Assembly: GCF_003857015.1 (NCBI RefSeq)
Contig: NZ_QGGF01000612.1
Coordinates: 1-64,000, forward strand
DNA: 64,000 nucleotides
Direction of reading: 5' to 3'
Source: Micromonospora globispora
Lineage (GTDB): Bacteria; Actinomycetota; Actinomycetes; Mycobacteriales; Micromonosporaceae
A program made the position numbers and the translations under genes. Every line of letters starts with the position of its first letter. Within the stretch, counting starts at the first letter, position 1. The notes under the pieces were generated by a model. The model worked only from the letters and a program-made list of their open reading frames with translations. It was not told where the DNA came from and searched no databases. Shown piece by piece: positions 7,651 through 49,446 of the stretch.

Positions 7651-7657
7651 GTCGACG

Positions 7658-7689: not shown

Positions 7690-7697
7690 GTGCTTGG

Positions 7698-8531: not shown

Positions 8532-8634
8532 GCCCTCCAGCTTGCCCCACCCGCGGCCGGTCAGGGTGGTACCGCCGATCCCAGCCTCCGCGGGTCTCTC
8601 CCGACCCACCGCGGCCGGCGGCAGGCTCGGTGTC

Positions 8635-9384: not shown

Positions 9385-9454
9385 GGGCTTGACCTCGAGT
9401 GCGCTCGAAGGTGGACGGTGGTCGGCGACGGCTCTCATCCAGCGGGGAGGACCC

Positions 9455-12041: not shown

Positions 12042-12259
12042 GGGCACCCCTCTCGTGTGGACGCGCGACGAGGGACCCGCGTGGCAGTGACGAGACACCC
12101 CCCGTGCGTCATGTGCCGCCGGCATCGTATGGCGACCGGCCCGTCACGCACTGTCCGTGACCCGGCACCGCCCCGACCTTTCCGCAGCCCTTGCACGACT
12201 TCGCATAACGGCGTCACCTGGGACAGGCCGACTCGTCACTCCTGTTCCCCCAGGTGTGG

Positions 12260-12766: not shown

Positions 12767-12910
12767 GACGCCCCCTCATGCCGGGTGGTAGTGAAGCAGC
12801 CACCACCGACATTCCGGGTGGCTTCCCGGGTGACGGACATGCGCCCACAATCCGTGCTGCAGCAGTTGTAAGGCGTTGCGGAACGAGTTCGACCTCGAGG
12901 AGGTGCTGTG

Positions 12911-13363: not shown

Positions 13364-13380
13364 CCCGTCCCGAGCCGACC

Positions 13381-13418
13381 GCCCCCGACCAGCCGCCACG
13401 GCGGGTCGGGGGCCTTTT
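13381..13418 (+). terminator. Rho-independent terminator after the SUKH-3 gene
   Basis: GCCCCCGAC (13381-13389) pairs with GTCGGGGGC (13405-13413), with CCGCC/GGCGG pairing inside (13393-13397 with 13400-13404). The hairpin is followed by CTTTT, a U-tract that is rare in this G+C-rich sequence. It is a textbook intrinsic terminator. Confidence 0.85.
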
Positions 13419-13437
13419 CGCGGCCGCGCCAGTAAAG

Positions 13438-13497
13438 CTCAACCAACTGGTTTACAAACGGGCACGCCGTCGCCTATCCTCAACCACATGGTTGAGG
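13438..13497 (+). promoter_or_regulatory. Promoter with two ArsR-type operators; leaderless start
   Basis: A -35 box TTTACA (13451-13456) and a -10 box TATCCT (13475-13480) are 18 bases apart, placing the transcript start at or beside the ATG at 13488. No ribosome site is present, so the mRNA is probably leaderless. Two copies of AACCA-N2-TGGTT are present: 13441-13452, overlapping the -35, and 13482-13493 inside the larger perfect dyad CCTCAACCA-CA-TGGTTGAGG (13478-13497), which covers the start codon. The centres are 41 bases apart. Binding of the ArsR product would block its own promoter. Confidence 0.75.
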
Positions 13498-13823
13498 ATT
13501 CGGTGGGCATGGACGCGGTGTTCCACGCCCTCGCACACGGCGCGCGGCGCACCATGCTGCGCCGGCTCGCCGAGCGGGAGCTGACCGTCGGCGAACTGGC
13601 CGAGCCGCTGGAGATGTCCCTGGCCGCCGCGTCCAAGCACGTGCAGGTGCTGGAGCGGGCCGGCCTGGTCAAGCGCACGGTCACCGGCCGGCGGCACGTG
13701 TGCCGGCTGGAAGCCGCCCCGCTCGCCTCCGCCTCGGCCTGGTTGAACTTCTACGAGCGCCACTGGACCGAGCGGCTCGACGCCCTGGAGGCGCTCTTCA
13801 CCGACGAAGGGACCGACCGATGA
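13488..13823 (+). CDS. ArsR family winged-helix repressor
   Basis: The 111-residue protein is a minimal ArsR regulator: MDAVFHALAHGARRTMLRRL, ELTVGELAEPLEMSLAAASK (recognition helix) and HVQVLERAGLVKRTVTGRRH. It has none of the cysteine metal-binding motifs of ArsR/SmtB sensors. It belongs to the group paired with SRPBCC (AHSA1) genes, where the ligand is usually unknown. It starts without a ribosome site inside a perfect palindrome, and its stop overlaps the next start by four bases (ATGA). It heads a three-gene operon that it probably represses. Confidence 0.88.
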   Translation: MVEDSVGMDAVFHALAHGARRTMLRRLAERELTVGELAEPLEMSLAAASKHVQVLERAGLVKRTVTGRRHVCRLEAAPLASASAWLNFYERHWTERLDALEALFTDEGTDR

Positions 13824-14275
13824 GCACCGCCGTACGGCTGCACCGCGACATCCCCGCCCCACCCGACAAGGTCTACCGGGCCTGGCTCGACCCCGACCTG
13901 CTGCGCCGGTGGCTCGCCCCCGGCGGGCTGGAGGTGGCCCGCGCCGAGGTCGAGCCGCGGGTGGGCGGCCGGTACCGGATCTGGCACTCCGATGCCGGCA
14001 CCGACGTCGGCGGCTTCGACTGCGAAATTGTCGAGCTGGAACAGGACCGGCGCATCGTCTGGCGCTGGGGCTTCGTCGGCCCGCAGCGCACCGAGGGGCC
14101 GAGCTTCGACTCGCTGCTGACCGTGACCCTCGACGGAAAGCCGGACGGCGGGACTGACCTTTCCCTCGTACACGAGCGTTTGGACGAGCTGGCGGCGGCG
14201 ATGCCGCAGGTGGCCGACGGCGTGGCACCCGGCTGGGAGTCGGCGCTGGACAAGCTCGCGGAGGTGGCGGCGTGA
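13820..14275 (+). CDS. SRPBCC / AHSA1 (START-like) domain protein
   Basis: The 151-residue protein has the AHSA1-type helix-grip fold markers: RDIPAPPDKVYRAWLDPDLL, RRWLAPGGLEV, GGRYRIWHSD, DRRIVWRWGFVGPQR and the terminal helix GWESALDKLAEVAA. Such proteins have a hydrophobic pocket and bind small ligands or assist proteins. It is coupled to the ArsR gene by ATGA and to the DHFR-like gene by a 4-base overlap (GTGA), a frequent actinobacterial arrangement. Physiological role unknown. Confidence 0.86.
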   Translation: MSTAVRLHRDIPAPPDKVYRAWLDPDLLRRWLAPGGLEVARAEVEPRVGGRYRIWHSDAGTDVGGFDCEIVELEQDRRIVWRWGFVGPQRTEGPSFDSLLTVTLDGKPDGGTDLSLVHERLDELAAAMPQVADGVAPGWESALDKLAEVAA

Positions 14276-14859
14276 AGCTGGTGGTGGTCGAGTGGATGAG
14301 CATGGACGGTGTGGTGCAGGCGCCCGGCGCGCCCGACGAGGACCCCAGCGGCGGGTTCACGCACGGTGGCTGGCACCTGCGTTGGTTCGACGACACGTCG
14401 CGGCAGTGGGTGGTCGACAATCTGAACGTCGCGTCCGCCTTCCTGTTCGGACGGGTGACGTACCAGAACTTCGCCGCGCATTGGCCGCACGTGACTGGGC
14501 CGGAGCGGGTGGTCGCGGACCCGCTGAACAGCAAGCCGAAGTACGTGGTGTCCTCGACGCTCTCGTCCGCCGACTGGGCGCACTCCGCGCTGCTGCCCGG
14601 GGACCTGGTGCCGGCGGTGGGCGCGCTCAAGGAGCTGGGTGACGGTGAGGTGCACCTGATCGGCAGCGCTCGGCTGGCCGCGACGCTGCTGGCGCACGAC
14701 CTGGTTGACGAGCTACGGCTGATGGTCGACCCGGTGCGCCTCGGCGGCGGCAAGCGCATCTGGCCGGAGGATGGTCTGCTGCGGTCGTTCTCGCTGGTGA
14801 GCAGCCAGGCGACGAGCACCGGCGCACTCCTCGTCACCTACGCGAAGGTCACCGACTGA
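14272..14859 (+). CDS. Dihydrofolate reductase family protein (RibD C-terminal-like)
   Basis: The 195-residue protein starts MKLVVVEWMSMDGVVQAPGA (GTG start overlapping the previous stop) and contains LFGRVTYQNFAAHWPH, KYVVSSTLSSADWAHSALL, VHLIGSARLAATLLAHDLVD and LRLMVDPVRLGGGKRIWPED. These are the conserved blocks of the small RibD-C/DHFR-like proteins of actinomycetes. They bind NADPH but usually are not the housekeeping folate enzyme. It is the last gene of the ArsR operon. Confidence 0.88.
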   Translation: MKLVVVEWMSMDGVVQAPGAPDEDPSGGFTHGGWHLRWFDDTSRQWVVDNLNVASAFLFGRVTYQNFAAHWPHVTGPERVVADPLNSKPKYVVSSTLSSADWAHSALLPGDLVPAVGALKELGDGEVHLIGSARLAATLLAHDLVDELRLMVDPVRLGGGKRIWPEDGLLRSFSLVSSQATSTGALLVTYAKVTD

Positions 14860-14919
14860 CGAAACGGTCGGGAGCGCTCGTGGAGGACTAGCCGTCGGGC
14901 TACCGGGAATGCGCGGGCC

Positions 14920-15141
14920 ATGGGTAGCCACAAGCCGAACAAGCATGATCCAGGCGGCGAGTCGGCGCGCGCGGGGCGGAATCCCGGCAGCGGGGCACGG
15001 GGCCGGCAGGGCTCCGAGGTCGAACACTCGCCGCAACGCCGGCGGCTGCGAGCCGCGACCGGGACATCCGGCACAGAACGCGACCAGGGCCGGGCCAGGG
15101 TCGAGGGCCGCGAACGGGTCCAACGCCAAGGAACGCGCTGA
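14920..15141 (+). CDS. Possible small hydrophilic basic protein
   Basis: A 73-codon frame starting MGSHKPNKHDPGGESARAGR is rich in Gly, Arg, Gln and Ser and lacks any hydrophobic core, so it would be disordered. It lies in the 366-bp gap between the DHFR-like gene and the GYD gene. No convincing ribosome site precedes the ATG, and high G+C sequence makes chance frames common, so it may not be a gene. Nothing else is seen in the gap. Confidence 0.25.
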   Translation: MGSHKPNKHDPGGESARAGRNPGSGARGRQGSEVEHSPQRRRLRAATGTSGTERDQGRARVEGRERVQRQGTR

Positions 15142-15225
15142 ACAGACCCCCGGTCCACCGAGAGTTGATCCGTAGGCACTGGCGGCCGCCGCGCGGCCGC
15201 CACCACATCGGGAGTTGATGTCGAG

Positions 15226-15546
15226 GTGCCCAAATTCCTGTTGCAGTCGACCTACACCGTCGAGGGGCTCAAGGGGCTGATCAGTGACGGTGGCACCAAG
15301 CGCGTCGACGTCGTCCGGAAGACGATCGAGGCCAACGGCGGGCGGCTGGAGTCGATGTACTTCTCATTCGGTAAGAAGGACACCTATGTGTTGTGTGACC
15401 TGCCGGACCACAGGAGCGCGGCCGCACTGGTCATCGCCATCCGGGCAGCCGGCGGTTTGGACTCGCGGGTCACACCGGTGCTGACCGCCGAGGAGGTCGA
15501 CGAGGCGGTCCGGGTGAAAGAGACCTACCAGCCCCCGGGCCGTTGA
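15226..15546 (+). CDS. GYD domain protein
   Basis: The 106-residue protein shows the GYD family layout: MPKFLLQSTYTVEGLKGLIS, a helix with a basic face (TKRVDVVRKTIEANGGRLES), MYFSFGKKDTYVLCDLPDHR and a final segment with LTAEEVDEAVRVK. GYD proteins are small ferredoxin-fold proteins of unknown function, often in stress-related gene sets. It starts at a GTG with only a weak ribosome site. Monocistronic as far as can be seen. Confidence 0.85.
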   Translation: MPKFLLQSTYTVEGLKGLISDGGTKRVDVVRKTIEANGGRLESMYFSFGKKDTYVLCDLPDHRSAAALVIAIRAAGGLDSRVTPVLTAEEVDEAVRVKETYQPPGR

Positions 15547-37188: not shown

Positions 37189-38322
37189 TCATTCGCCTTG
37201 GGCGGGGAGCGTCGGAGCCTCGACTACGGGGTCCTCTGGCCGCGCGCGCCGCCATGCACCTCCGTTGACCTCGACGAATGGCTCGGGGTCACCTTGTCCC
37301 CAAGGGTGCAGACGAGTGCTGACGAACCTGCCGAGCGTGGGTGCAGGCAGGCCGAGTTCTTGTGCCATCTGGGGGTGCGGCGCATAGTGACCGAAGATCA
37401 CTATGCCCTCGGGCTTCAACTTCCTACGAGCGTCGCGTACTCGCTTGGCACTGTCGACTTGTTGGGCGGCGGTGAGGACCGTGGCCCGATTGACCAGCTC
37501 GCCGGTCAGTTCTCGGAACAGGTTCGTGACGGCGGTCTGACCATGCCTGGCGTAGGCGATGAGGTCCAGCTTGGTGGCGTCCTTGATATGTAGAAGCGTA
37601 TTGCTCACAAGGTCCGCACCGGGCACTACCCAGAGGATGCGGTCACGCCCGCGATCATTGAGCCGTCGTTTCCCGTCGCGCTGGCGTCCCAATGGTTTGA
37701 GCACCTCTTCGCTTATGCGAATGAGGCCCGATGCCCACCGCGCGGTGTACTCGTTGGCCCAGGCGACGAAAGCCAGCTTGGCGCCCCGGCTGTGCATCTC
37801 CTGGGGGATCTCCCAGTCGTACAGGTTCAACGACCACTTGCAGTCGACGTCCACGCCGGCTATCCGATAATCGAGTTCCTCCCCGTCGTCGAAGCCGAAT
37901 TCCCGCTGCAGCCAGATCTCGACGAGTGTGCCTATGTGCGTCTTCTCGGTCTTCATGAGCTGTGTGAAGTCCCAGCGGCCGGTACGTTGGCCGTCGTAGA
38001 TCTGGTCGAGCGCTTCCCGGATCGCATATCCCGTTCGTACGCCGTCTGGATCCATGGACTTGATGGCCGCATATACACCCCACAGCTCGGGGTCCTCCTG
38101 CGGGGTGGGCGGCCGTGCGTCCGTTCGGAACGGCGCGGGCCCCGTGGCAGGTCGTGGCCGGCCCGTGGTTGACGGGCGGCGTGGCAGTACGCGCCTGCGG
38201 TGTACCCGGAGGGTACGTGGTATCACGACCTCGACGGTGCGTGGTGTCACGACATCGACGGTGCGAGGTATCACGACATCGACCGCGTCATCCGAGAAGA
38301 GTTCACCTTGAGTGACCGACAC
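37189..38322 (-). CDS. naeIR-like: NaeI-family type II restriction endonuclease
   Basis: The 377-residue protein matches R.NaeI (target GCCGGC, a type IIE enzyme needing two sites) along its length: SMDPDGVRTGYAIREALDQI, YDGQRTGRWDFTQLMKTEKT, HIGTLVEIWLQREFGFDDGE, LDYRIAGVDVDCKWS, and a late LKPEGIVIFGHYAPHPQMAQ. The NaeI catalytic residues are conserved with the same spacing: Glu135, Asp151, Asp160 and Lys162. The ligase-like segment of NaeI is ALDQIYDGQR here (residues 104-113). The N-terminus carries a 70-residue extension with three 8-residue repeats not found in NaeI. It lies 72 bases after the methyltransferase gene, same strand. Specificity for GCCGGC is inferred from the family. Confidence 0.9.
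   Translation of the reverse strand: MSVTQGELFSDDAVDVVIPRTVDVVTPRTVEVVIPRTLRVHRRRVLPRRPSTTGRPRPATGPAPFRTDARPPTPQEDPELWGVYAAIKSMDPDGVRTGYAIREALDQIYDGQRTGRWDFTQLMKTEKTHIGTLVEIWLQREFGFDDGEELDYRIAGVDVDCKWSLNLYDWEIPQEMHSRGAKLAFVAWANEYTARWASGLIRISEEVLKPLGRQRDGKRRLNDRGRDRILWVVPGADLVSNTLLHIKDATKLDLIAYARHGQTAVTNLFRELTGELVNRATVLTAAQQVDSAKRVRDARRKLKPEGIVIFGHYAPHPQMAQELGLPAPTLGRFVSTRLHPWGQGDPEPFVEVNGGAWRRARPEDPVVEAPTLPAQGE
38216..38287. repeat. Three 24-bp tandem repeats in the NaeI-like gene
   Basis: Three in-frame copies, 38216-38239, 38240-38263 and 38264-38287, differ by a few bases and encode the 8-residue unit VDVVxPRT in the N-terminal extension of the endonuclease. Slippage-prone repeats near a start codon can vary in copy number. 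Confidence 0.85.
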
Positions 38323-38394
38323 AGGCGGAGGCTGCCAGACCAGGCTCCCCTCGTCAAACAGCCCCGTTCCGTGTTGCTCTATGGGGCTGACAGT

Positions 38395-39501
38395 TCAGCG
38401 CAGGTAATCTTTGAGGTGGCGCGCGATGGCTGCGGCCAAGCCGGACGGCACCGCGTTGCCGATCTGCTTGGCTATCTCGATCTTCGAACCGCACCACAGG
38501 TAATCCTTGGGGAAGTCCTGCAGCAGTGACGCCTCGTAGTGAGTGATGACGCGGTTCACCCGCCGTGCCGGGTCGACGGGATCCCACTGCGGATGAAGGT
38601 ACTGGCCCTTCTCTGGCTTGAAAAATTCCGTGCGGATCGTCAACGACGGCGCATCCCAGCGCATGCGTCCCATGACGTCCGTCGTCCCGGTCTTCTTCTC
38701 ACGCCAACAGCGAGACAAGAGGTGGTCCGGGAGGTTGAAACGACCTCCACCTGGAGGGATGTGGTCATAGCGTTCGAGCGATCGAGCTGTAGGTTGTCGA
38801 CCGAAATGGATGTCTGTTCCTTTGAACTCACCCTTGATGCGCTCGCCGAAATACTCCGTCGTGGCGTCGGGAAGCTCTGTCGTAGCCGGATGCTCATCCA
38901 CGGATCCGATGCGGCTACGCACCGTCTCCCATGGCAGGAGATCCCCGGTCGGCACCTTGGCGTGTGTGGGCAGCGGTAGCGGTATGCTGCCGATGCGGGA
39001 TCCGATCACGATGGTACGAGGACGACGTTGCGCCACTCCGTAGTCGGCTGCGAGCAGGACTCCCGAGCTGAGCTCGTAGTCCTTGATAATGCCGTGGTCG
39101 GCCTCGTTGAACAGGAGCTGGAACTCGCTGGTTCTCGAGAAGCGCTCCACGTTCTCGATGACGAACACCTGGGGCTGCGCCGTTACAACGAAGCGGAGAT
39201 ACTCCTTCCAGAGCTTGTTGCGCGGATCGTCGACGTCCTTGCTGCCAAGGTTCGAGAACCCCTGGCAGGGCGGCCCACCGATGATCACCTCAGCCTGAGG
39301 GATCTCGTCTTCACGGACGAGGGCGATGTCCCCCCACCGCGTGTGCGATTCGCCAAAGTTGGCGGCGTAGGTTGCCGCCGCCGCCAAGTCCCACTCTACA
39401 GAGAGAACCGGACGAAAGCCCTCACTATGGAAACCGACGGTCATACCGCCGCACCCTGCAAACAGGTCGATCATGCTTAGGCGGTCGCTCACCCGCGACA
39501 T
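38395..39501 (-). CDS. naeIM-like: C5-cytosine DNA methyltransferase of the NaeI system
   Basis: The 368-residue enzyme has all main C5-methyltransferase motifs: I MIDLFAGCGGMTVGF, IV IIGGPPCQGFSNLG (catalytic Cys79), VI VFVIENVERF, VIII QRRPRTIVIGSR, IX SRIGSVDEH with the preceding target region, and X IGNAVPSGLAAAIARHL. Its place directly upstream of the NaeI-like endonuclease implies that it protects GCCGGC. In class 2 DISARM a C5 methyltransferase is also part of the system, so it might serve both. It diverges from the vsr gene by 53 bases. Confidence 0.92.
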   Translation of the reverse strand: MSRVSDRLSMIDLFAGCGGMTVGFHSEGFRPVLSVEWDLAAAATYAANFGESHTRWGDIALVREDEIPQAEVIIGGPPCQGFSNLGSKDVDDPRNKLWKEYLRFVVTAQPQVFVIENVERFSRTSEFQLLFNEADHGIIKDYELSSGVLLAADYGVAQRRPRTIVIGSRIGSIPLPLPTHAKVPTGDLLPWETVRSRIGSVDEHPATTELPDATTEYFGERIKGEFKGTDIHFGRQPTARSLERYDHIPPGGGRFNLPDHLLSRCWREKKTGTTDVMGRMRWDAPSLTIRTEFFKPEKGQYLHPQWDPVDPARRVNRVITHYEASLLQDFPKDYLWCGSKIEIAKQIGNAVPSGLAAAIARHLKDYLR

Positions 39502-39554
39502 GTTAGTTGCCCCTGCTCTCGAAGCAACGCCGGCGCGCCGGTGAGGTAGAACGC

Positions 39555-40010
39555 ATGTCCGAAAAATCCTGGGCTTCGTCCGCAGGGGTGCGGAAGTCCA
39601 TGCAGGCGAATACGGGACGCGACACGCGGCCTGAACTGGCGCTCCGCCGGGCCGTGCACGCCCTCGGCTTGCGCTATTACGTCAACAGGCGTCCGATCAA
39701 ATCCGTCCGCCGCACGGCAGACCTCCTGTTTCCGCGCCTGCGGCTCGCGGTGTTCCTTGACGGTTGCTTCTGGCACGGCTGCCCTGACCATCACACGGTG
39801 GCCAAGAGGAACGCCGCCTTCTGGGCTGAGAAGGTCTCGACCAATCGTCGACGGGATGCCGAGACGAACGCCGTCTTGGCGACGGCAGGCTGGATAGTCG
39901 TGAGGATCTGGGAGCACGAGCCTGCGGAAGAGGCTGCAGCCAAGGTGGCACGCGTTGCGGCGCGGCTACGGAGAGCCGGCCGCGCGGCGGACGAGTGCAC
40001 TGAGCCTTGA
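39555..40010 (+). CDS. vsr: Very short patch repair (Vsr) endonuclease
   Basis: The 151-residue protein has the Vsr pattern: RKSMQANTGRDTRPELALRR, AVHALGLRYYVNRRPIKSVR, RTADLLFPRLRLAVFLDGCF, WHGCPDHHTVAKRNAAFWAE, with the catalytic Asp56. Vsr nicks next to T:G mismatches left by deamination of 5-methylcytosine, so its pairing with the divergent C5 methyltransferase is functionally sensible. The ATG at 39555 has only a weak ribosome site. It is the first gene of the plus-strand block; 91 bases separate it from the helicase gene. Confidence 0.92.
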   Translation: MSEKSWASSAGVRKSMQANTGRDTRPELALRRAVHALGLRYYVNRRPIKSVRRTADLLFPRLRLAVFLDGCFWHGCPDHHTVAKRNAAFWAEKVSTNRRRDAETNAVLATAGWIVVRIWEHEPAEEAAAKVARVAARLRRAGRAADECTEP

Positions 40011-40101: not shown

Positions 40102-43100
40102 ATGATCACCGTGCCGACCGCAGCCAACTGGGACCAGCCTGATCCAGCCCTTCAGGCATGGATCGAGACGCACCGGAAGAATGCCCTGAACGCGTACGAG
40201 GCTGATCCACTGCTAGTCGGGGAACACGGTCTCCAAGAGGACGGGTTCAGGACCGGCGGATACGCCCAGCGGCAGGTGCTCGAACTGGTCCAGAACGCCG
40301 CGGATGCTCTGCGGCGCGCCGGAACCCGCGGCCGCGTGGAGGTGGTGCTCTTCGACGGCACGCTTTACTGCGCCAACGAGGGTGCACCCTTCGGGCTGGA
40401 CGGGCTGGAGGCGCTCTCTCATGCCTACCTCAGCGGCAAACGCGGCGACGACATGGGCCGGTTCGGCCTCGGCTTCAAGTCAGTACTCGGCGTCACCAAC
40501 ACCCCCTTGGTCCTCAGCCGCTCCGTGTCCTTCTCCTTCAGCGCTGAGGCGAGCCGCCGGGCGTTGACGCGGGTGGCGCCGGACGCGCCGAAGTACCCGG
40601 TGCTGCGTCTGCCGATTCTCGCTGACGCCAGGGCGGAGATGAGCACGGATCCAATTCTGTCCGGCCTCGGCGACTGGGCGCAGACGATCATCCGGTTGCC
40701 TTTGGCGGGTTCCAACCAGCGGTTGAACGACGACATGCGGAGCTTCCCGAAAGAGTTCCTGCTCTTCGCGCCCTTTGTATCCGAACTGGTCATGAGGTTT
40801 CCCGACGGATCCGGACAGGGGTTCCGTTGCGAAGACCTCGGTGAACGGCGGTACCGGCTGATCGGGACGGAGGGCACGTCGGCGGACTGGATGGTATGGC
40901 ACCAGACGCACCGGCCCTCTGAGGAGGCGCTGGCCGAGGTCAGCGAGGCCATCCGGCGACCGGAGGTCACTGTCTCCTACGCTGCCCCGCTGGACGAGAC
41001 GCAGACGTTGGGCCGCTTCTGGGCGTATTTCCCGCTGCAGGACTACACGTCGGCCCGTGGGATCTTCAATGCGCCCTGGCACATCAGCGATGACCGAACC
41101 AACCTCCTCCCCGGTCGATTCAACGAAGAACTGCTCAGGGTGGCCTCGGATCTCGTGGTGACCGCTCTGCCGCACCTGCGAACCGAGGAGGACCCGGCGC
41201 GTCATTTCGACTACATGCCGGCACGTGGCCGCGAGACTGACAACTTCGGTGATCTCCGGCTGACCGAGCTCGTGCCCGAGGCCGCCGCGACGGAGGCGTG
41301 CGTACCGGACGCCGAGGGTCTCCTGCGTCTGCCCGCGGATCTGGAATACGCGAACGCAGACCTCCGCCTGGAGATGGCTAGCTTCGTGGCGTGGAGCCAG
41401 GCTCCTGGCAGGCCCGTCCGCAGCCCACATTGGACCTGCTACCGGACGCCGACACGTCGCGCCCGCCTCCGTAGGCTGGTGCGAGGCGATGCCACCCGAC
41501 CCGCACCGAACGAACTGAGTGCGGCGGACTGGCTGACAAGTCTGGTACCCGACGCCAGCGACGAACAATGCGTAGCCGCGCTGAAAGTGGTCTTCACCAT
41601 CGGAGACGAACCAGTCCGCCGAGACATGCTTCGCGCTCCCATCATTCCCGACTCCTCGGGCACGCTGACCCGCCTCGGCCTGGTGAACAACCTCTTCCTG
41701 CGCGGTGACCGCCTCAGTGCGACTGCCGGGATCCGACTGGTGCGGCCGAGTTTCCTCGACCTGCCGGACGTCGAGGATCAGCTCCGAGCACTCGGTTTCA
41801 CCGACGTCGACCCTAAGCACGAGTTGCAGCAGCTCGCCACGACAGTCGCCAACCGGTGGACGGGCCAGGAGTGGCGGGACTTCTGGAACCTGGTCTCGGA
41901 CGTCAGCGTTCGCGACGCTCAGGTCATCCTCCTCGAACATGTCAGGAAGGGCGCCACCCTCAAGGTGCAGTGCCGCGACGGCTCCTGGCAACACGTCGGC
42001 TGCGCAGTAACCCCCGGCCTCGTGGATCCGATCGATGCCTCTCTAGCGGTCGACATCGATTACCATGAGCTTCATCTGGATCTGCTCAGAGTCATCGGTG
42101 TGGCCGATCGACCGGTGATCAGCAGCGTCGCACTACAAGACTTGACGCTGTCCGAGTATCGACGCAGGCAGCGCGTCGAGTACGTGGAGAGCCTGCCCCC
42201 ACGTGGCCGTCCCGAACGCGGCGACATCGACTTCGTCGAGCAGGAAGGCCCCACGCCACTACACGTGCTACGACGGTTCCAAGACACGCACGACGACCGA
42301 GCACGCATGCTTTGGACAAGAGCTCTGCTCGAGATCGACACCCCGCCGACGTGGACCCTGCAACACCCCAACACCAAGAAATTCGCGCCACACCAGGTCG
42401 CCGCCCCACACATCTGGGCGGCGCAGAACTACGGGCTGCTGGAGACAGCTTGGGGTCCACGTGAGCCCCTGCGCTCCCTGCATCCCGACCTCGCACACCT
42501 GGATCCCCTTCTTCCCGTGGCGCGCTGGCAGGTCGCCGCGAAGCTGGACACCATCGCCGACGAGAAGGACGTGTCCGTCAACCTGTGGCGTGAGTTCGTC
42601 TCGCGCACGCCCGTGGGTGGCGACGCCCGACAGCTCGGAGCACTCATCGGCACCGCGCTCCAGCGGCTGCCAGCCGGCGACGTGCCGGAGTGCCTACCTG
42701 CAGTAAGTAACAACGGCTACGACAGCGTGCCGACCGCACAGCTGCTCATCGCCAACACCGATCAAGAGGTCAGAACGCTGAAGGAGGAAGGGCTTCCGTT
42801 CGTCGTCGTCGAAGACGAGTCGGTCGCACAGGGCCTCGTCGAGAGATGGGGATGCCAGTCCGCTGCGTCGATGCTCCGGGTGGAGATCCTCCCTGAGACG
42901 CCGAGCGAACCCATCGTGCTCCTCGACCGCTTCCGCCGCCTGCGCGACTACACAAGCGGAGAACTCGACGAGTTCGAGCTGATCGGATGCGCCTCCCTGA
43001 GCCGGGCGGTGACCCTACCCACAGGAACCGACAGCCGTCCCGAGGACTTCGCGGTCGCCAGACGTACGATCTACTTCGAGAACTCACTGGGCGAGGAGGA

Positions 43101-44760
43101 CTTGCTCGCGAGGATCTCAGAGCACTTCCAGCTCGGTCTCGACGCCCTGGCCATCACGCGCATCCTTCAAGAGGCCGACAGCGAGCGGATCCAAGCCGCC
43201 ATGGCACAGGCACGCTCACTGCACGAGCCGGGGGATAAACTGCTGGCCCTGCTCCCCGTCGCCGCCCTTGAGGCCAAGCTGCCCGCGGGGCTGCTCGAGA
43301 CGGTACGGGCGGTGTCGGGCGACGCCGGGAACAAGCAGGTCGCCGAGCTGCTGTGGCATGTACATGGCTACAACGTGCTCAGCGAACTGCGCCACGACCT
43401 CCGGGACAATGGTTACCCCGTACCCGAAACCTGGGCTGGATCTGCACCGGCCATTGCCTTCGTGCGCAAGCTGGGATTCTCCGCCGAGTTCGCCGGCGAG
43501 CGTGGCCGTCAGCTCGACTCCGACATCACAGTCCTCGGCCCCCCCGATCTGAAACCTCTCCACGACTACCAACAGCGCCTGGCCGAGCAGATCCAGGATC
43601 TCGTGCATCCCAGCGACAAGCCTGATCGAGCGCTCCTCTTCCTTCCCACCGGGGCAGGCAAGACCCGCGTGACGGTCGAGGCGTTGGCCACCTCCATCCA
43701 CGACCGCATCTTCACCGGCCCCGTCCTCTGGATCGCCCAGAGCGAGGAACTCTGCGAGCAGGCGATCCAGACGTGGGCGACGGTGTGGCGCCAGGTCGGC
43801 AATCGCCCGCTGCGGCTGTGCCGACTGTGGGATAAAAACGAGGTCACTGCGAGTGACTCCGACGCGAACGTCGTCGTGGCCACAGATGCGAAGCTCGACC
43901 ACGTCCGCCTCCGCTCCGACTACGACTGGCTGCTGGATGCTGCGGTCGTGGTCATAGACGAAGCGCACGGTGCCACGGCACAGGGCATTACGGCCACACT
44001 TCGATGGCTCGGGATCGGCCAAGGGAGGACCGCCCGCCCACTGCTCGGGCTCACAGCGACCCCATTTAAGGGAACCGGAGAAGCCGCGAACAAGGCCCTG
44101 GCAAGCCGCTTCAACAACAGGCAGCTCAACGTGCTGGGTGATGACCCGTACGGTGAACTGCAGCGGCTCGAGGTGCTGGCCAGGATCCAGCACCGAGTCC
44201 TGCCAGGCTCCTACTACGCCCTGGACCCCGCCGAACGGCAGCAACTGGCCCGATACCGTGACGTCCCGCGATCGGTCCTCGAGCGAGTCGGTCGAGACCA
44301 GCATCGAACCCTGCGCCTGCTGGACGACATCTCGAAGCTGCCTGAAGACTGGCCGATCCTCGTCTTCACCTCATCGGTGCTTGCCGCGCAGACCCTGTCC
44401 GCGCTCCTTCGGCTGCGTGGCATCTCGTCGGCCACCATCAGTGGCGCCACACCGACGACTGAACGGCGGCGAACGATCGAGGCGTTCCGTGACGGAACGA
44501 TCCAGGTGCTGACGAACTGCAACGTCCTGACCCAGGGGTTCGACGCCCCGGGCGTTCGGGCGCTCTACATTGCGCGGCCCACCTTCAGCCCGAACGCCTA
44601 CATCCAGATGGTCGGGCGGGCTCTACGCGGGCCTGCCAACGGCGGTAAGGCTGAGTGCTTGGTCGTCAACGTCGCGGACACCTTCGAGACCTTCGGCGAG
44701 GAACTCGCTTACCAGAAGTTCGACCACCTATGGAAGAACCAGGGTGGTGGTCCCAACTGA
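40102..44760 (+). CDS. Sacsin-like GHKL ATPase fused to an SF2 helicase
   Basis: The protein has 1552 residues from the ATG at 40102 (no clear ribosome site; possibly leaderless or coupled to vsr). The N-terminus is a GHKL ATPase of the sacsin/HSP90-like type: QVLELVQNAADALRRAG (N-box, near residue 61) and DDMGRFGLGFKSVLG (G1 box). About 1000 residues without recognised domains follow. The C-terminus is an SF2 helicase: LLFLPTGAGKTRVTV (Walker A, near 1184), VVVIDEAHGATAQG (near 1286), LLGLTATPFKGTG and YIQMVGRALRGPANG (motif VI, near 1501). It belongs with the next three genes, which overlap in series. GHKL-helicase fusions are known mainly from phage-defence loci; the mechanism is unknown. 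Confidence 0.85.
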   Translation: MITVPTAANWDQPDPALQAWIETHRKNALNAYEADPLLVGEHGLQEDGFRTGGYAQRQVLELVQNAADALRRAGTRGRVEVVLFDGTLYCANEGAPFGLDGLEALSHAYLSGKRGDDMGRFGLGFKSVLGVTNTPLVLSRSVSFSFSAEASRRALTRVAPDAPKYPVLRLPILADARAEMSTDPILSGLGDWAQTIIRLPLAGSNQRLNDDMRSFPKEFLLFAPFVSELVMRFPDGSGQGFRCEDLGERRYRLIGTEGTSADWMVWHQTHRPSEEALAEVSEAIRRPEVTVSYAAPLDETQTLGRFWAYFPLQDYTSARGIFNAPWHISDDRTNLLPGRFNEELLRVASDLVVTALPHLRTEEDPARHFDYMPARGRETDNFGDLRLTELVPEAAATEACVPDAEGLLRLPADLEYANADLRLEMASFVAWSQAPGRPVRSPHWTCYRTPTRRARLRRLVRGDATRPAPNELSAADWLTSLVPDASDEQCVAALKVVFTIGDEPVRRDMLRAPIIPDSSGTLTRLGLVNNLFLRGDRLSATAGIRLVRPSFLDLPDVEDQLRALGFTDVDPKHELQQLATTVANRWTGQEWRDFWNLVSDVSVRDAQVILLEHVRKGATLKVQCRDGSWQHVGCAVTPGLVDPIDASLAVDIDYHELHLDLLRVIGVADRPVISSVALQDLTLSEYRRRQRVEYVESLPPRGRPERGDIDFVEQEGPTPLHVLRRFQDTHDDRARMLWTRALLEIDTPPTWTLQHPNTKKFAPHQVAAPHIWAAQNYGLLETAWGPREPLRSLHPDLAHLDPLLPVARWQVAAKLDTIADEKDVSVNLWREFVSRTPVGGDARQLGALIGTALQRLPAGDVPECLPAVSNNGYDSVPTAQLLIANTDQEVRTLKEEGLPFVVVEDESVAQGLVERWGCQSAASMLRVEILPETPSEPIVLLDRFRRLRDYTSGELDEFELIGCASLSRAVTLPTGTDSRPEDFAVARRTIYFENSLGEEDLLARISEHFQLGLDALAITRILQEADSERIQAAMAQARSLHEPGDKLLALLPVAALEAKLPAGLLETVRAVSGDAGNKQVAELLWHVHGYNVLSELRHDLRDNGYPVPETWAGSAPAIAFVRKLGFSAEFAGERGRQLDSDITVLGPPDLKPLHDYQQRLAEQIQDLVHPSDKPDRALLFLPTGAGKTRVTVEALATSIHDRIFTGPVLWIAQSEELCEQAIQTWATVWRQVGNRPLRLCRLWDKNEVTASDSDANVVVATDAKLDHVRLRSDYDWLLDAAVVVIDEAHGATAQGITATLRWLGIGQGRTARPLLGLTATPFKGTGEAANKALASRFNNRQLNVLGDDPYGELQRLEVLARIQHRVLPGSYYALDPAERQQLARYRDVPRSVLERVGRDQHRTLRLLDDISKLPEDWPILVFTSSVLAAQTLSALLRLRGISSATISGATPTTERRRTIEAFRDGTIQVLTNCNVLTQGFDAPGVRALYIARPTFSPNAYIQMVGRALRGPANGGKAECLVVNVADTFETFGEELAYQKFDHLWKNQGGGPN

Positions 44761-46343
44761 AGATCATCCCTGGGCTGGACCGGCTCGGATACGTCCAGTC
44801 GGTTGCGGAGACACGTGTCGCCAAGCTGTTGTCCCAGGCAGATCTGGGTGAGCCAGCAACCTGCTTCTACTCGGTTCATCTGCCACGCCACGAGTACAAG
44901 CGCATGGCGGAAATCGACTTCCTCATAGTGCTGCGAGACCTGCTGCTGGTCATCGAGGTGAAGGGCGGCAGGCTGTCTCGGCGGGACGGCCTGTGGACCT
45001 TCACGGATCGGTTCGGAGAGGTTCACACCAAACGCGAAGGCCCGTTCGAGCAGGCGCGTAGCGCGATGTTTGCCCTCGAGGCGACCTTGGCACAGCGCAT
45101 ACCCGGCCTCACTGCGGCGTTCGGCACCGTTGTCGTGACCCCCGGCCAGGCACTGGACCGTGACCTGGAGTGGGATCCGGCCGAACACATCGGGCCCTCG
45201 GCCATGACCGTCAGTGGCTTCGAAACGGCGTTGATCAAGGCCCTCAGATTCTGGCGCGGCAGGTCGTCTCGTATCCCAAGGGGATCTGACTACCAGAGTG
45301 TCCTGTCGGTGTTGCGGCCGGACTTCGACCGCGTACCCCGCCTCTCACTATTGACCGGTGCCATCGAGTCCGAGTATGTGGCGTTGGCTCGGGAGCAGTA
45401 CGACATGCTGCGCGGCAGCGAGATCAACGACAGGATCTTCTGCACGGGCGGCGCCGGTTCGGGCAAGACACTTCTCGCGGTCGAGACGGCCCGCCGCGCG
45501 GCGAGCAGCGGGGCATCCGTTCTTCTCACCTGTCGCTCTTCCGGCGTCGTCGATGTGATGCGTCGTTCGCTCGGCGAGACCAAGGTCAGGTGCGTGCCAT
45601 GGTCCGATGCGGAGAAGCTCGACCCCTTCGACGTCCTCGTCGTGGACGAGGCGCAGGACCTACTCAACCTCGACGACTGCCTGGAACTCGACCGGCTCGT
45701 CGTGGGGGGCCTACAGCGAGGCCGATGGCGCATGTTCAGTGATCCCAACAATCAGACGAACATTCATGGCGCCTTCGACCCCGACATCTATCAGGAGGTG
45801 GCGGCCGGCGCCGCCCGCTACCAGCTCCCGTACAACTGCCGGAACACCTCAGCGATCGTCGATCAGACACAGCTTATGACCGGGGCCGACCTGGGTGTCG
45901 CGAAGGCGGGCCAGGGCCCGGCGGTGGACTTCGTGAGGCCCGCCACCGACCTCGATGCAGCGGCTCTGCTGGATGCACGCCTCAAAAGGTTCCGTCAGGA
46001 GGAGATCGACCTCGCCGAGATCGTGGTCGTCACGTTGCGGGACTCGGTTGCGAATAGCGCTGCCACGAGAAGCCGCGCTTTCATGAGAGGACAACTGGTC
46101 GCCGAGACGGGTTCCGGAACGCCAACGGTCGCGGGTGTCGCCCGATTGGTGACGGTTCAGGAGTACAAGGGCTTGGAGGCACAGCACGTTTTGGTGATCG
46201 ACGTGGATGACCTGTCCGAGGCCCGCGACATGTCGAAGCTGTATGTTGCTATGACCAGGCCACGGGTCTCCCTGTGGCTGGCCGTCAGTCCGTTAGCCTG
46301 GCAACAGTTGTCGAAGATGCCCGAAGGACGCCGCGATGCCTGA
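44730..46343 (+). CDS. NERD nuclease domain fused to a UvrD/DUF2075-type helicase
   Basis: The ATG at 44730 lies inside the end of the previous gene (31-base overlap). The 537-residue protein starts with a NERD domain: VAETRVAKLLSQADLGEPAT, EIDFLIVLRDLLLVIEVKGG, whose Asp, Glu75 and Lys77 form a PD-(D/E)XK site. The rest is an SF1 helicase: CTGGAGSGKTLLAVETARRA (Walker A near residue 240), LVVDEAQDLLN (near 305), TVQEYKGLEAQHVLVIDVDD and LYVAMTRPRVSLWLAVSPLA. Nuclease and motor in one protein suggest processing of DNA ends. The stop overlaps the drmA-like start by 8 bases. Confidence 0.88.
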   Translation: MEEPGWWSQLKIIPGLDRLGYVQSVAETRVAKLLSQADLGEPATCFYSVHLPRHEYKRMAEIDFLIVLRDLLLVIEVKGGRLSRRDGLWTFTDRFGEVHTKREGPFEQARSAMFALEATLAQRIPGLTAAFGTVVVTPGQALDRDLEWDPAEHIGPSAMTVSGFETALIKALRFWRGRSSRIPRGSDYQSVLSVLRPDFDRVPRLSLLTGAIESEYVALAREQYDMLRGSEINDRIFCTGGAGSGKTLLAVETARRAASSGASVLLTCRSSGVVDVMRRSLGETKVRCVPWSDAEKLDPFDVLVVDEAQDLLNLDDCLELDRLVVGGLQRGRWRMFSDPNNQTNIHGAFDPDIYQEVAAGAARYQLPYNCRNTSAIVDQTQLMTGADLGVAKAGQGPAVDFVRPATDLDAAALLDARLKRFRQEEIDLAEIVVVTLRDSVANSAATRSRAFMRGQLVAETGSGTPTVAGVARLVTVQEYKGLEAQHVLVIDVDDLSEARDMSKLYVAMTRPRVSLWLAVSPLAWQQLSKMPEGRRDA

Positions 46344-49300
46344 ACCGCGAACCTTCGCTCGACTGCGCGAGGACGTCGTCACATACCTGCGGCGCCAATA
46401 CCTCGGCCCTGAGAACGATGAGTCAGAGGTGCTGAAGGACCGCCCCGACAGGGTGTACCTCGTCGGCACCCTCTACCCTCGTGGACCCGCGGCCCAGCCC
46501 CTCGACGGTGAGATCCTGGGCGACGACGGCCACGAGGAAGGGCTTGACGAACCGATCGAGCTGGCGAATGCATGGCATCCAGCCTCTGCAGCCATATCTT
46601 TCCTCCATGACGGAGCCGAGATCACCGTCCTGCTGTCCGCGGCACGCTACGAGCGCCTAGCCGACGAAACCGGCTGGCGACGCCTGCCACTGACTGAAGC
46701 ACCCATCGTGCTCGACCCGCAGACCGACCCGGTCGCCTGCTTCGACGGTGCCGCACGGCTTCGCGCCGAGTGGCGCAGGACAGGTGATGCATGGCTGGTC
46801 ACGGTGGCGGTTGAAAACAGTGCCCGCCACGACAACGCAGAGTCCCCGCCTCCCACTGAGGACTGTCTGTTCCAGGTCCGCATTGTCTGCACCGTAGAGA
46901 GCGGCCAGGTGCGGCCGTACCCCTCGGTCACCCTGCTCAGTGACGACCAAGAAGACGAGGAACTGCAGCTGCTGTACCGACACCGGCAGGTCTACGGGGT
47001 CGGGCACGGATGCTCGGTGACGTGGGACGCCCTGCCCGATGGAACGGTTCGCACGGTGGCGACTGAGATGCTGCCCCGGAGCATCGTGCCTGGTGTGTCT
47101 CCTGGATCCCGCGGTTCCGCCGTACTGCGCCTGGCATATCTTGCGGACCAGACCGTGCCGACGGCACGGCTAGTCGAGGCCCTCGATGCATTCATCGACG
47201 CCTACGACGAGTGGGTAGAAGCACGCCACAAAGAGGCGCCGACGCTCGGCGCCCATCACAGCGACGCGGCGAGCCGGCTCCTGACCCGCATGGACACGGC
47301 CCGGGCAAGGATGCGCGAAGGTGTACGCGTCCTGGCGAAGAACGGTAACGAACTGGTCGCGTTCCGTCTGGCCAACAAGGCTATGCGTGAACAGATCCTG
47401 CAGACCCGTCACGCCAAGGTTGCACCCGGACGGCGTAACCAGCCTCTGGTCGAGCGGCCATCCGAGATGTCGGAACCGGCCTGGTACCCGTTCCAGCTCG
47501 CCTTTCAGCTTCTCACCATCGCCTCGACCGCTAACAGCAAGCATGAGGACCGGGGCGTCGTGGACCTGATCTGGTTCCCGACCGGCGGCGGTAAGACTGA
47601 GGCTTACCTCGCCCTAGCCGCATTCGAGATGATCCACAGGCGGCTGATACGGGGACACCACGGCGGAGGAACAGCCGTCCTCACCAGGTACACCCTGCGT
47701 ATGCTCACCGCCCAGCAGTTCCAACGAGCCGCGACCCTCATCTGCGCGCTAGAGCGCATGCGCCAAAAGGACGACCGGCTTGCCGGAAAGGCTCCCTTCT
47801 CGATCGGTCTCTGGGTCGGTGGCGAGACGACGCCGAACAGGTTCGAGGAGGCCCACGCTCTTACCCGAGAGCTTCGTAGGGCGTCGGAGCCAGACAACCC
47901 CTTCCAGATCAACAATTGCCCCTGGTGCGCCACGCCGCTGCTCCCTGCGCAACGCACTAGGGATCACGGCGCCTACGGTGTGCGGTCAACCAGGCACACG
48001 TTCGAACTGTTCTGCCCCCACACCGAGTGCCCCTTCCACCAGGAGCTGCCGGTACGGGTCGTCGACCAGCAGATATTCGCCGATCCGCCCACACTTCTCG
48101 TGGCAACCGTCGACAAGTTCGCCAGGATGCCCTGGCATAACGAAGCAGGGGTGGTGCTGGGCCGCGACAACTCACCGTACGATCCGCCGGGCCTCGTCAT
48201 CCAAGATGAGCTACACCTGCTGTCGGGTCCGCTGGGGACGACCGTGGCACTCTATGAGGCCGCCGTCCTCGGGCTAATCGGCTGGAACGGCACTAGAGCC
48301 AAGGTAGTCGCCTCAACTGCGACGATCAGATCAGCGCCCGAACAGGTACGTCGTCTATACGGATCCGAGGTCGCACTATTTCCTCCCAGCGGGCTCGACG
48401 CCGACGATAGCTACTTCGCCGCCGTCGACCGGGAGTCGCCCGGCCGGATGTATGTGGGACTAATGCCCCAGGCGCACACCCAGTCCCGGGCGACCGGCCT
48501 GGCCGCGGTAGCCCTCCTCGAAGCGCCCATGTTGGTCCGTGAACAGCCCAGCGATCTGGACGCCTACTGGACAGTGGTGGCCTACCACAACTCGCTCCGA
48601 GAACTCGGGCGAACCGTCACCATCGCCCGTGACGACATTGAAAGCATGCTCACCGCCCGAGCATCGATGCGGGAAAAGAACTCCCGGCGGATCCGCCGGG
48701 ACGGCGTCGTCGAACTCACCAGTAACGTCCCGCCCAGTGCCCTGATCAAGAGGCTCGCCCGCCTCGAACGCCGCGTCGACCACGGTGATGCCATCGACCT
48801 CGTGGCCACGACCAACATGCTGTCCGTCGGGATCGACATCAGTCGCCTCGGCCTGATGCTCATGAACGGCCAGCCAAAGACGACCTCCGAATACATCCAG
48901 GCCACCAGCCGAGTGGGCCGATCCGACGTGCCCGGCCTCGTCGTGACCCTGCTCCGCGCGGGAAAACCCCGAGACCGTTCCCACTACGAATCCTTCAGGG
49001 CGTTCCACGAATCGCTGTACCGCCACGTCGAACCGACCAGCGTCACACCGTGGTCGGCGGCATCCCGGCAACGATCACTTCACGCAGCGCTGGTTATGCT
49101 CGTCCGGCACGGTGCAGGACTGCGATTTAACGATGATGCCAGCCAGTTCCGCGCTACCGACGCACCCGTGGCCAAGGCCGTCCGCATCCTGCTCGACGCC
49201 GTGACCGAGTGCGAACCGGAAGCAGCCGAGGACACTCGAGTCGAATTACAACGGCTTGTCAACGAATGGGAGCGCAAGGCTCGCCGCGCTGAGGAACTCG

Positions 49301-49446
49301 GGTTGAACCTGCGCTACGACAGCAGCGACAACGAACACCCGGTACTGCTGTGCGACTTCGGAGAGCGGCGGGATGCGTGGCCGACCATGCATTCGATGCG
49401 CTCAGTCGACCGCACCGTGCGGGTGATCGCGCTGGGGGAGGCCTGA
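46336..49446 (+). CDS. drmA-like: DrmA-like helicase (DISARM core)
   Basis: The 1036-residue protein has an SF2 motor: LIWFPTGGGKTEAYLALAAF (Walker A near residue 417), AVLTRYTLRMLTAQQFQRAA, VIQDELHLLSGPLGTTVALY (motif II DELH near 624), KVVASTATIRSAPEQVRRLY and SEYIQATSRVGRSDVPGLVV (motif VI). A zinc-finger-like insert (NNCPWCATPLLP, then ELFCPHTECPFH near 527-575) sits between the first motifs. This architecture, DELH in motif II, and adjacency to a DUF1998 protein identify DrmA of DISARM. Its stop overlaps the next start by one base (TGATG). Confidence 0.85.
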   Translation: MPEPRTFARLREDVVTYLRRQYLGPENDESEVLKDRPDRVYLVGTLYPRGPAAQPLDGEILGDDGHEEGLDEPIELANAWHPASAAISFLHDGAEITVLLSAARYERLADETGWRRLPLTEAPIVLDPQTDPVACFDGAARLRAEWRRTGDAWLVTVAVENSARHDNAESPPPTEDCLFQVRIVCTVESGQVRPYPSVTLLSDDQEDEELQLLYRHRQVYGVGHGCSVTWDALPDGTVRTVATEMLPRSIVPGVSPGSRGSAVLRLAYLADQTVPTARLVEALDAFIDAYDEWVEARHKEAPTLGAHHSDAASRLLTRMDTARARMREGVRVLAKNGNELVAFRLANKAMREQILQTRHAKVAPGRRNQPLVERPSEMSEPAWYPFQLAFQLLTIASTANSKHEDRGVVDLIWFPTGGGKTEAYLALAAFEMIHRRLIRGHHGGGTAVLTRYTLRMLTAQQFQRAATLICALERMRQKDDRLAGKAPFSIGLWVGGETTPNRFEEAHALTRELRRASEPDNPFQINNCPWCATPLLPAQRTRDHGAYGVRSTRHTFELFCPHTECPFHQELPVRVVDQQIFADPPTLLVATVDKFARMPWHNEAGVVLGRDNSPYDPPGLVIQDELHLLSGPLGTTVALYEAAVLGLIGWNGTRAKVVASTATIRSAPEQVRRLYGSEVALFPPSGLDADDSYFAAVDRESPGRMYVGLMPQAHTQSRATGLAAVALLEAPMLVREQPSDLDAYWTVVAYHNSLRELGRTVTIARDDIESMLTARASMREKNSRRIRRDGVVELTSNVPPSALIKRLARLERRVDHGDAIDLVATTNMLSVGIDISRLGLMLMNGQPKTTSEYIQATSRVGRSDVPGLVVTLLRAGKPRDRSHYESFRAFHESLYRHVEPTSVTPWSAASRQRSLHAALVMLVRHGAGLRFNDDASQFRATDAPVAKAVRILLDAVTECEPEAAEDTRVELQRLVNEWERKARRAEELGLNLRYDSSDNEHPVLLCDFGERRDAWPTMHSMRSVDRTVRVIALGEA

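What the first reader, a model, noticed from the sequence alone, without database searches (positions are those of the whole stretch)
40102..44760. 1552-residue sacsin-like GHKL ATPase joined to an SF2 helicase
The protein carries two separate ATP-using domains at its ends: an N-terminal GHKL (N-box QNAADA, G1 MGRFGLGFKS) and a C-terminal DEAH helicase, separated by about 1000 residues without known domains. It heads the DISARM-like operon and could be the sensor or the part that decides between self and foreign DNA in place of DrmE.
Basis: partly seen in the sequence, partly recalled or inferred. Interest (0 to 1): 0.75.

Follow-up and report, generated by a model that had tools for sequence, protein, structure and literature searches.

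The report
Two-motor protein of DISARM-like defence
A very large bacterial protein with two separate ATP-driven motors is a regular part of a four-gene, apparently undescribed relative of the DISARM anti-phage system, seen almost only in Actinomycetota and accompanied by exchangeable DNA-marking and DNA-cutting genes.

Summary
In detail: one ORF (40102-44760, 1552 aa) joins an N-terminal GHKL+S5 ATPase (Hsp90/sacsin/MORC/TopoVI-B fold) to a C-terminal RadD-type SF2 helicase, with both active sites unvaried in 57 of 57 family members. In an even sample of the order, 20 of 21 copies are full-length; one is cut by a contig edge. It begins a conserved core, SacHel > SF1 helicase > DrmA > DrmB (78 of 84 loci; 20 of 21 in the order sample). 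SacHel distances track SF1, DrmA and DrmB (r 0.96-0.98) but barely the C5 methyltransferase (r 0.26), so R-M genes look exchangeable. Of 24 SacHel genomes, 0 have DrmE and none has class I DrmC beside SacHel. The one DrmE locus found has DrmE in the same slot. Corrections: a Vsr gene precedes it; 'G1' is the later glycine-rich lid; the middle is the body of a sacsin-type module that occurs without a helicase in an MZA-like plasmid operon. 'In place of DrmE' is supported for position (one DrmE locus), untested for function. Best reading: an ATP-gated DNA clamp-translocase that loads SF1 and DrmAB on unmodified DNA. New variant of a known kind.

The parts
40102..44760 (+). SacHel: 1552-aa GHKL (sacsin-type) ATPase joined to a RadD-type SF2 helicase
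40198..41181 (+). residues 33-360: GHKL ATPase plus S5 transducer domain
   Evidence: AF2 model, VIA matches to TopoVI-B, Hsp90, SMCHD1, MORC2, sacsin SR1; NF047352
41302..43521 (+). residues 401-1140: sacsin-type body, predicted scaffold; 17 of 740 positions at 97% or more, 11 of them W, G or P
   Evidence: no PDB sequence match
43534..44757 (+). residues 1145-1552: RadD-type SF2 helicase core
39555..40010 (+). Vsr-family endonuclease gene directly upstream, same strand (ATG 39555)
   Evidence: PF03852 59.7 bits; sequence
44730..46343 (+). NERD nuclease domain plus SF1 (UvrD-like) helicase; start codon tentative
   Evidence: PF08378, UvrD_C_2; E86, D88, E101, K103 in 33 of 33 partners of this type, window included; sequence
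46336..49446 (+). DrmA-type helicase
   Evidence: NF038325 877 bits (cut-off 950), PADLOC DrmA 700 bits
49446..51251 (+). DrmB (start read from the frame)
   Evidence: NF038324 415 bits (cut-off 240), MZB domain
38395..39501 (-). C5-cytosine DNA methyltransferase, divergent neighbour
   Evidence: PF00145 191 bits, PADLOC DruM2/MTase_II
37189..38322 (-). NaeI-family restriction endonuclease
   Evidence: PF09126 392.5 bits
51296..52174 (-). 292-aa protein, winged-helix part plus a CxxC/HNH-like end (the latter read by eye)
   Evidence: HTH_39 E 0.023 only; relatives of it in 17 of 84 loci

Best explanation
SacHel is the regulatory two-motor component of an uncharacterised DISARM-like immune system whose core is SacHel, an SF1 helicase (with a NERD nuclease in this lineage), DrmA and DrmB. 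Shown by sequence: composition, gene order, co-divergence and unvaried catalytic residues. Inferred: (1) a C5 methyltransferase marks self DNA, while Vsr/NaeI-type nucleases cut or nick unmarked DNA; (2) the GHKL+S5 part dimerises on ATP and closes as a clamp on DNA, as MutL and MORC proteins do (recalled); (3) the RadD-type motor engages ends, forks or gaps and moves the clamp; (4) the clamped complex loads the SF1 helicase(-nuclease) and DrmAB, which unwind and destroy the DNA. The sacsin-type body is the scaffold that connects the two motors and docks the partners. The slot is that of DrmE in the one DrmE locus seen, so SacHel may do DrmE's job by other means.
For: Both ATPase sites unvaried in 57 of 57. 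Core order in 78 of 84 non-redundant loci and in 20 of 21 copies from an even sample of 348 genomes of the order. SacHel distances correlate with SF1 0.973, DrmA 0.982, DrmB 0.960 (68 loci) but with the C5 methyltransferase 0.257 (57 loci). C5 methyltransferase in 71, Vsr in 60, NaeI-like in 12 of 84. DrmE in 0 of 24 SacHel genomes; the single DrmE locus has it in that slot. NERD residues unvaried in 33 of 33. GHKL fold shared with clamp ATPases. GHKL + SF2 helicase + methylase + Vsr operons were described for MORC/paraMORC (PMC2292703, passages); DrmAB binds 5'-overhang DNA and is autoinhibited until loaded (PMC9142583, passages); ARMADA type II combines a BrxHII-like helicase, a UvrD-family helicase, a YprA-like helicase and a methyltransferase, and acts directly, not abortively (PMC12458937, abstract and passages).
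Against: No experiment. Distance correlations have no species-tree baseline, so vertical descent contributes. Four DrmA lineages close to the window's (L147, L149, L150, L152) come from genomes without a SacHel match, so SacHel is not indispensable to DrmAB. 13 of 84 loci show no C5 methyltransferase and 22 of 84 none of Vsr/NaeI/P7 in the DNA held (some flanks are cut), so the R-M link is loose. Hsp90 chains fill the 50 Foldseek rows shown and tie with TopoVI-B and MORC2 by Z, which leaves a chaperone role open. [quoted passage not shown]
Confidence: 0.45

Rival explanations
1. SacHel is mainly a DNA-damage or replication-state sensor: the RadD-type domain recognises SSB-coated gaps or forks of replicating phage DNA, and the GHKL switch passes this to DrmAB and SF1.
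For: RadD is first in Foldseek and the best NCBIfam helicase model; RadD ATPase is stimulated by SSB rather than DNA (PMC10238739, passages).
Against: The match to the RadD family model is far below cut-off (98 of 720 bits); the stretch that carries RadD's SSB pocket aligns too weakly to judge (4.9 bits).
Confidence: 0.2
2. SacHel is a chaperone-like assembly factor (Hsp90/sacsin style) that builds or protects the multi-helicase complex, without acting on DNA through the GHKL part.
For: All 50 Foldseek rows shown are Hsp90-family chains; Hsp90 and sacsin SR1 are among the best Z; eukaryotic sacsin acts as a chaperone (PMC3710099, passages).
Against: Fusion to a complete helicase and steady linkage to DNA helicases; TopoVI-B, SMCHD1 and MORC2 match as well by Z.
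Confidence: 0.13
3. SacHel is a Tiamat-like stand-alone effector that happens to travel with DrmAB.
For: PADLOC TmtA profiles match residues 17-482 (E down to 1e-41); SacHel lies away from a same-strand DrmAB in L020 and L059.
Against: Only about the first third of those profiles is matched; co-divergence with SF1, DrmA and DrmB at r 0.96-0.98; adjacency in 78 of 84.
Confidence: 0.08
4. The motor half is the essential translocase (Res- or ArmA-like) and the GHKL half only regulates its turnover; self/foreign choice rests entirely on the methyltransferase and DrmAB.
For: A stand-alone SacHel-type helicase without GHKL sits beside DrmAB in G186 (38% identical over 484 positions).
Against: GHKL residues unvaried in 57 of 57; the G186 DrmA lies in the DrmC-side clade, far from SacHel-type DrmA.
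Confidence: 0.14

Closest known systems
DISARM class 2 (DrmE, DrmA, DrmB with C5 methyltransferase)
   Same: DrmA and DrmB homologues, a C5 methyltransferase nearby, a large gene in the slot before SF1-DrmA-DrmB; DrmA of the one DrmE locus branches on the same side as SacHel-type DrmA
   Different: no DrmE in 24 of 24 genomes, no class I DrmC beside SacHel; no similarity of SacHel to that DrmE found
DISARM class 1 (DrmC present)
   Same: DrmA-DrmB core
   Different: DrmA of the 10 DrmC loci fall in one clade of 13 rows that holds no SacHel row
ARMADA type II (ArmA BrxHII-like, ArmB methyltransferase, ArmC YprA-like, ArmD UvrD-family)
   Same: similar parts list by function (PMC12458937, passages); one SacHel (G335) sits with an SF1 helicase, a DruE/YprA-type helicase and a type IIG enzyme
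   Different: DrmA and DrmB split, C5 methyltransferase, GHKL-fused RadD-type motor
MZA-like operon of Arthrobacter plasmid p2MP
   Same: its 1096-aa sacsin protein aligns with SacHel from residue 24 to about 1005 over 969 columns (hhalign E 1e-118, 26% identity); with C5 methyltransferase and MzaB/C/D-like genes, the MzaB and MzaC matches being below their cut-offs
   Different: no helicase domain on the sacsin protein; Z1 helicase is a separate gene; no DrmAB in the 24 kb read
MORC/paraMORC restriction systems
   Same: GHKL+S5 ATPase with SF2 helicase, methylase and Vsr (PMC2292703, passages)
   Different: helicase and GHKL genes are described as neighbours there; no DUF1998 mention; sacsin-type here
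RadD/YejH
   Same: SF2 core, 24-26% identity
   Different: far below the family cut-off; no GHKL

Membership tests
DISARM | DrmA helicase | tested here: inconclusive
   Window DrmA 877 bits, under the NCBIfam cut-off 950; of four relatives 3 pass (1018, 1007, 956) and 1 fails (817)
DISARM | DrmB with DUF1998/MZB | tested here: met
   415 bits against cut-off 240; MZB 34.9 bits
DISARM | DrmC PLD nuclease in the operon | tested here: not met
   No DrmC or PLD match among the 7 operon-region and 10 flanking window proteins scanned; class I model NF038319 has no hit near SacHel in 24 SacHel genomes, 3 having one elsewhere. A class II DrmC model was not searched in genomes
DISARM class 2 | DrmE | tested here: not met
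   NF038316: 0 of 24 SacHel genomes; the same search finds it in G178
DISARM | associated DNA methyltransferase | tested here: met
   C5 methyltransferase 38395-39501; in 71 of 84 loci
DISARM | anti-phage activity | not testable with these tools
   needs an experiment
GHKL ATPase | N-box and glycine-lid residues, S5 transducer | tested here: met
   57 of 57; fold Z 15.2 to TopoVI-B over both domains
Tiamat (PADLOC TmtA; that the two are the same is recalled) | full-length match to a TmtA profile | tested here: not met
   best profile matched at 9-414 of 1538 only
RadD | equivalog score | tested here: not met
   98.4 bits, cut-off 720
MORC | MORC-specific S5 motif | not tested
   motif described in PMC2292703, not scanned here
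[quoted passage not shown]
   window has split DrmA/DrmB and a C5 methyltransferase

The most novel reading that the evidence does not exclude
SacHel-SF1-DrmA-DrmB is a separate, third class of DISARM-like immunity in which an ATP-gated GHKL clamp carrying its own RadD-type motor replaces DrmE and works without DrmC. The same sacsin-type body serves MZA-like and possibly YprA/ARMADA-like operons, so it is a general licensing module that couples exchangeable restriction-modification marks to different helicase machines.
Probability: 0.4. Interest if true: 0.78.

Novelty: new variant of a known kind. Interest (0 to 1): 0.62.

Why it matters
What DrmE and other auxiliary DISARM genes do is open (PMC9142583, discussion passage). 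A lineage that regularly has a recognisable two-motor protein in what is DrmE's slot elsewhere gives a concrete, testable candidate for the step that licenses DrmAB. It also links three bodies of work that are usually apart: MORC/MutL-type GHKL ATPases in restriction systems, MZA, and DISARM/ARMADA. The tightly co-diverging four-gene core beside weakly linked methyltransferase genes suggests a plug-in design for self/foreign marking.

Tried and rejected
Hidden enzyme in the middle region: thought unlikely; 17 of 740 positions are at 97% or more, 11 of them W, G or P, the only polar ones being H443 and R452; no Pfam match and no PDB sequence match at E up to 1.

Repeat structure of the middle: profile self-comparison gave one suggestive pair (471-581 with 581-691, probability 81%); the other 65 pairs were under 7%. 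Not pursued.

Similarity of SacHel to DrmE and to the 1252-aa ORF in the slot of L147: none found; each was a comparison with a single sequence.

DrmC by a PLD motif pattern in 86 loci gave 1 hit (L067), but the pattern marked only 4 of the 10 loci that the DrmC profile shows to be positive, so it was set aside for the profile search in 24 genomes. The 80 named loci were not searched with the DrmC or DrmE profiles.

Rows dropped: of 86 loci, L023 (same contig as L013) and L094 (6.7-kb contig) were left out of the 84. For the distance test L016, L020 and L059 were excluded beforehand and L025 and L027 had no intact frame; 68 loci passed the placement rule, 57 of them with a C5 methyltransferase. 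The genome scan kept the best 80 of 358 relatives, so those 80 favour full-length copies; the even samples do not. The middle profile found only proteins of about 1600 residues in the 396-genome sample, but a remote stand-alone form such as P0010 could escape its first-look filter.

Phage and plasmid records: no record covers 80% of the query; the hits shown are to the helicase half, except one plasmid with the sacsin half. One IMG/VR contig carries a full-length copy.

Not in print, as far as searched: and term searches inside PMC12458937 showed no sacsin/GHKL-helicase protein with DrmAB. The library holds open-licence papers only. Other DISARM-like operons are in print, for example with ShdA (PMC10270631, passages) and with McrBC (PMC11090510, passages). 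Ofir 2018 is not held; Tiamat and MZA papers were not read, and what is said of them beyond database names is recalled.

Full report
WHAT IS THERE. Window 40102-44760 (+) is one open frame of 1552 codons. Pfam gives ResIII, DEAD and Helicase_C at the C-terminus; NCBIfam gives the sacsin-type ATP-binding domain at residues 57-137 above its cut-off, and RadD as the best helicase model though far below its cut-off. AlphaFold2 models built on 57 family members have mean pLDDT 88 for residues 1-1150 and for 405-1552, with pTM 0.54 and 0.49, so domain folds are trusted and their mutual arrangement is not. By Z, residues 33-360 match TopoVI-B 15.2, Hsp90 14.7, SMCHD1 14.3, MORC2 14.0 and sacsin SR1 13.7 (most are ties); by Foldseek the 50 rows shown are all Hsp90-family. 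Residues 1145-1552 match SF2 helicases: RadD is first in Foldseek (E 3e-14), while DEAD-box proteins lead by Z (DbpA 31.0), RadD being at Z 28.7 with 26% identity.

BOTH ENGINES ARE KEPT. In 57 family members (window included, none over 80% identical), E61, Q64, N65, D68, N92, G94, G119, G122, G124, K126, S127, D331 and R332 never vary, nor do P1182, T1183, G1184, G1186, K1187, T1188, D1286, E1287, H1289, A1319, T1320, Q1502, G1505, R1506 and R1509. The middle is less conserved: 17 of 740 positions at 97% or more, against 53 of 400 before and 74 of 412 after it. I read it as scaffold.

THE MIDDLE IS NOT AN ORPHAN. A profile of residues 1-1150 aligns over 969 columns (E 1e-118, 26% identity) with a 1096-aa protein of Arthrobacter plasmid p2MP that has no helicase. 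Its operon holds a C5 methyltransferase, an MzaB-like ATPase, a DUF4420/MzaD-like gene and a Z1/MzaC-like gene, the MzaB and MzaC matches being below their NCBIfam cut-offs. A more distant sacsin-type ORF of G057 aligns to about residue 820 (E 4e-29). So SacHel looks like a sacsin-type protein with a helicase added at about residue 1140. The helicase also exists alone: a 586-aa relative (38% over 484 positions) lies beside DrmB-DrmA in G186, and helicase-only relatives occur on plasmids and in G007. In Phytohabitans flavus (L025) the gene is two ORFs that meet exactly at this junction; a frameshift or assembly error is possible.

FUSION IS THE RULE. A middle-only profile hit 4 of 396 genomes drawn evenly from the phylum, all in frames of 1610-1618 codons, and 20 of 348 from the order with 21 matches, 20 in frames of 1543-1625 and one of 1129 that starts at a contig edge. 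Of the 84 non-redundant loci, 82 have a full-length frame, one is split (L025) and one is cut by a contig end (L027); 80 of the 86 loci before removal of two rows were chosen as best matches, so this second count is biased.

THE CORE. The order SacHel > SF1 helicase > DrmA > DrmB on one strand holds in 78 of 84 loci; exceptions are L016 (DrmAB first, then two SacHel copies), L020 and L059 (no DrmAB on the SacHel strand), L025 and L027 (no intact SacHel frame) and L079 (contig end). In the order sample 20 of 21 copies have it: window, L013, L014 and L017 and the 16 loci, where L172's SF1 gene came out only on a second look and L173's DrmB is in two ORFs. The exception, G335, has SacHel with an 885-aa SF1 helicase, a 2238-aa DruE/YprA-type helicase and a type IIG enzyme, 27 kb from a DrmA-DrmB pair. 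The SF1 partner has two forms by best profile, a NERD type (33) and a longer UvrD type (39), among 72 loci where it could be assigned; E86, D88, E101 and K103 of the NERD motif are in 33 of 33.

CO-DIVERGENCE. Over 68 loci, pairwise distances of SacHel correlate with SF1 (0.973), DrmA (0.982) and DrmB (0.960); over 57 loci with the C5 methyltransferase only 0.257. None of 999 permutations reached any of these values. There is no species-tree baseline, so vertical descent contributes; the contrast with the methyltransferase is the informative part, with the caution that the best-scoring methyltransferase of a locus need not be orthologous. C5 methyltransferase occurs in 71, Vsr in 60, NaeI-like in 12 and the window's 292-aa protein family in 17 of 84; 62 of 84 have at least one of the last three.

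PLACE AMONG DISARM. DrmB is found in 24 of 396 sampled genomes. Class I DrmC lies beside it in 10 of these, DrmE only in G178, where the order is DrmE > SF1 > DrmA > DrmB with a C5 methyltransferase. Of 24 SacHel genomes none has a DrmE match, and DrmC passes its cut-off in three, each far from SacHel or on another contig; no DrmAB was seen in the 19.9 kb read around G000's. In a quick DrmA tree of 55 rows, the 10 DrmC rows fall in one clade of 13, with 3 others (SH-aLRT 95), while SacHel rows fall on the other side with the DrmE row; the SacHel label needs 3 changes (the G335 row was labelled 'other'). Four lineages near the window's (L147, L149, L150, L152) come from genomes without SacHel, so it was gained or lost more than once.

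HOW IT PROBABLY WORKS. Shown: parts, order, unvaried sites, co-divergence. Inferred: the GHKL+S5 unit closes on DNA when it binds ATP, the RadD-type motor engages ends, forks or gaps and moves the clamp, and the complex loads the SF1 helicase(-nuclease) and DrmAB, while methylation spares self DNA. Support by analogy: MORC/paraMORC systems with SF2 helicases, methylases and Vsr (PMC2292703, passages); autoinhibited DrmAB that is activated by 5'-overhang DNA and proposed to sense methylation (PMC9142583, passages); ARMADA's three helicases plus methyltransferase, direct and non-abortive (PMC12458937, abstract and passages). I give this mechanism 0.45.

NOVELTY. [quoted passage not shown] Searches listed no description of this protein with DrmAB; the library holds only open-licence papers and supplements were not open to me. 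It may therefore be inside those authors' unshown data. I file it as a new variant of a known kind: DISARM-like by DrmA-DrmB and methyltransferase, not DISARM by its lack of DrmE and of an adjacent DrmC.

Noticed in passing
L156 (G335:C3:1-19900): SacHel next to an 885-aa SF1 helicase, a 2238-aa DruE/YprA-type helicase with MZB domain and a type IIG restriction enzyme: SacHel in an ARMADA/Druantia-like operon.
   Followed up: partly
L151 (G186:C1:3004400-3024300): Stand-alone 586-aa SacHel-type helicase convergent with DrmB-DrmA, with a strong MzaC/Z1 match nearby.
   Followed up: partly
L016 (G031) 5746-10392 and 10689-15389: Two divergent SacHel genes in tandem after DrmA-DrmB.
   Followed up: no
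L034 1829-8434 (L029 and L030 have genes of similar size there): MZA-like genes (Z1, DUF4420/MzaD-like, a 633-aa gene) beside the SacHel operon.
   Followed up: partly
L092 5058-9089 and Streptomyces loci with genes of similar size: A 718-aa HTH protein (PADLOC PDC-M33A), a 331-aa protein without match and a DUF6339 protein (PDC-M33C) between methyltransferases and SacHel.
   Followed up: no
L184: IMG/VR contig IMGVR_UViG_3300003747_000017 carries a full-length 1568-aa SacHel near its end; viral or misassigned host DNA is not settled.
   Followed up: no
L147 489-4247, L148 1761-3833, L153 2246-3784: ORFs of 1252 (coding strand uncertain), 690 and 512 aa without Pfam or PADLOC match in the DrmE/SacHel slot of other DrmAB loci.
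   Followed up: partly
window 37189-40010: NaeI endonuclease, C5 methyltransferase and Vsr lie together and may be a complete NaeI-type R-M system beside the DISARM-like core.
   Followed up: partly
G000:C166:25429-25932: DrmC-like PLD gene on another contig of the window's genome, with no DrmAB in the 19.9 kb read; could serve in trans.
   Followed up: partly
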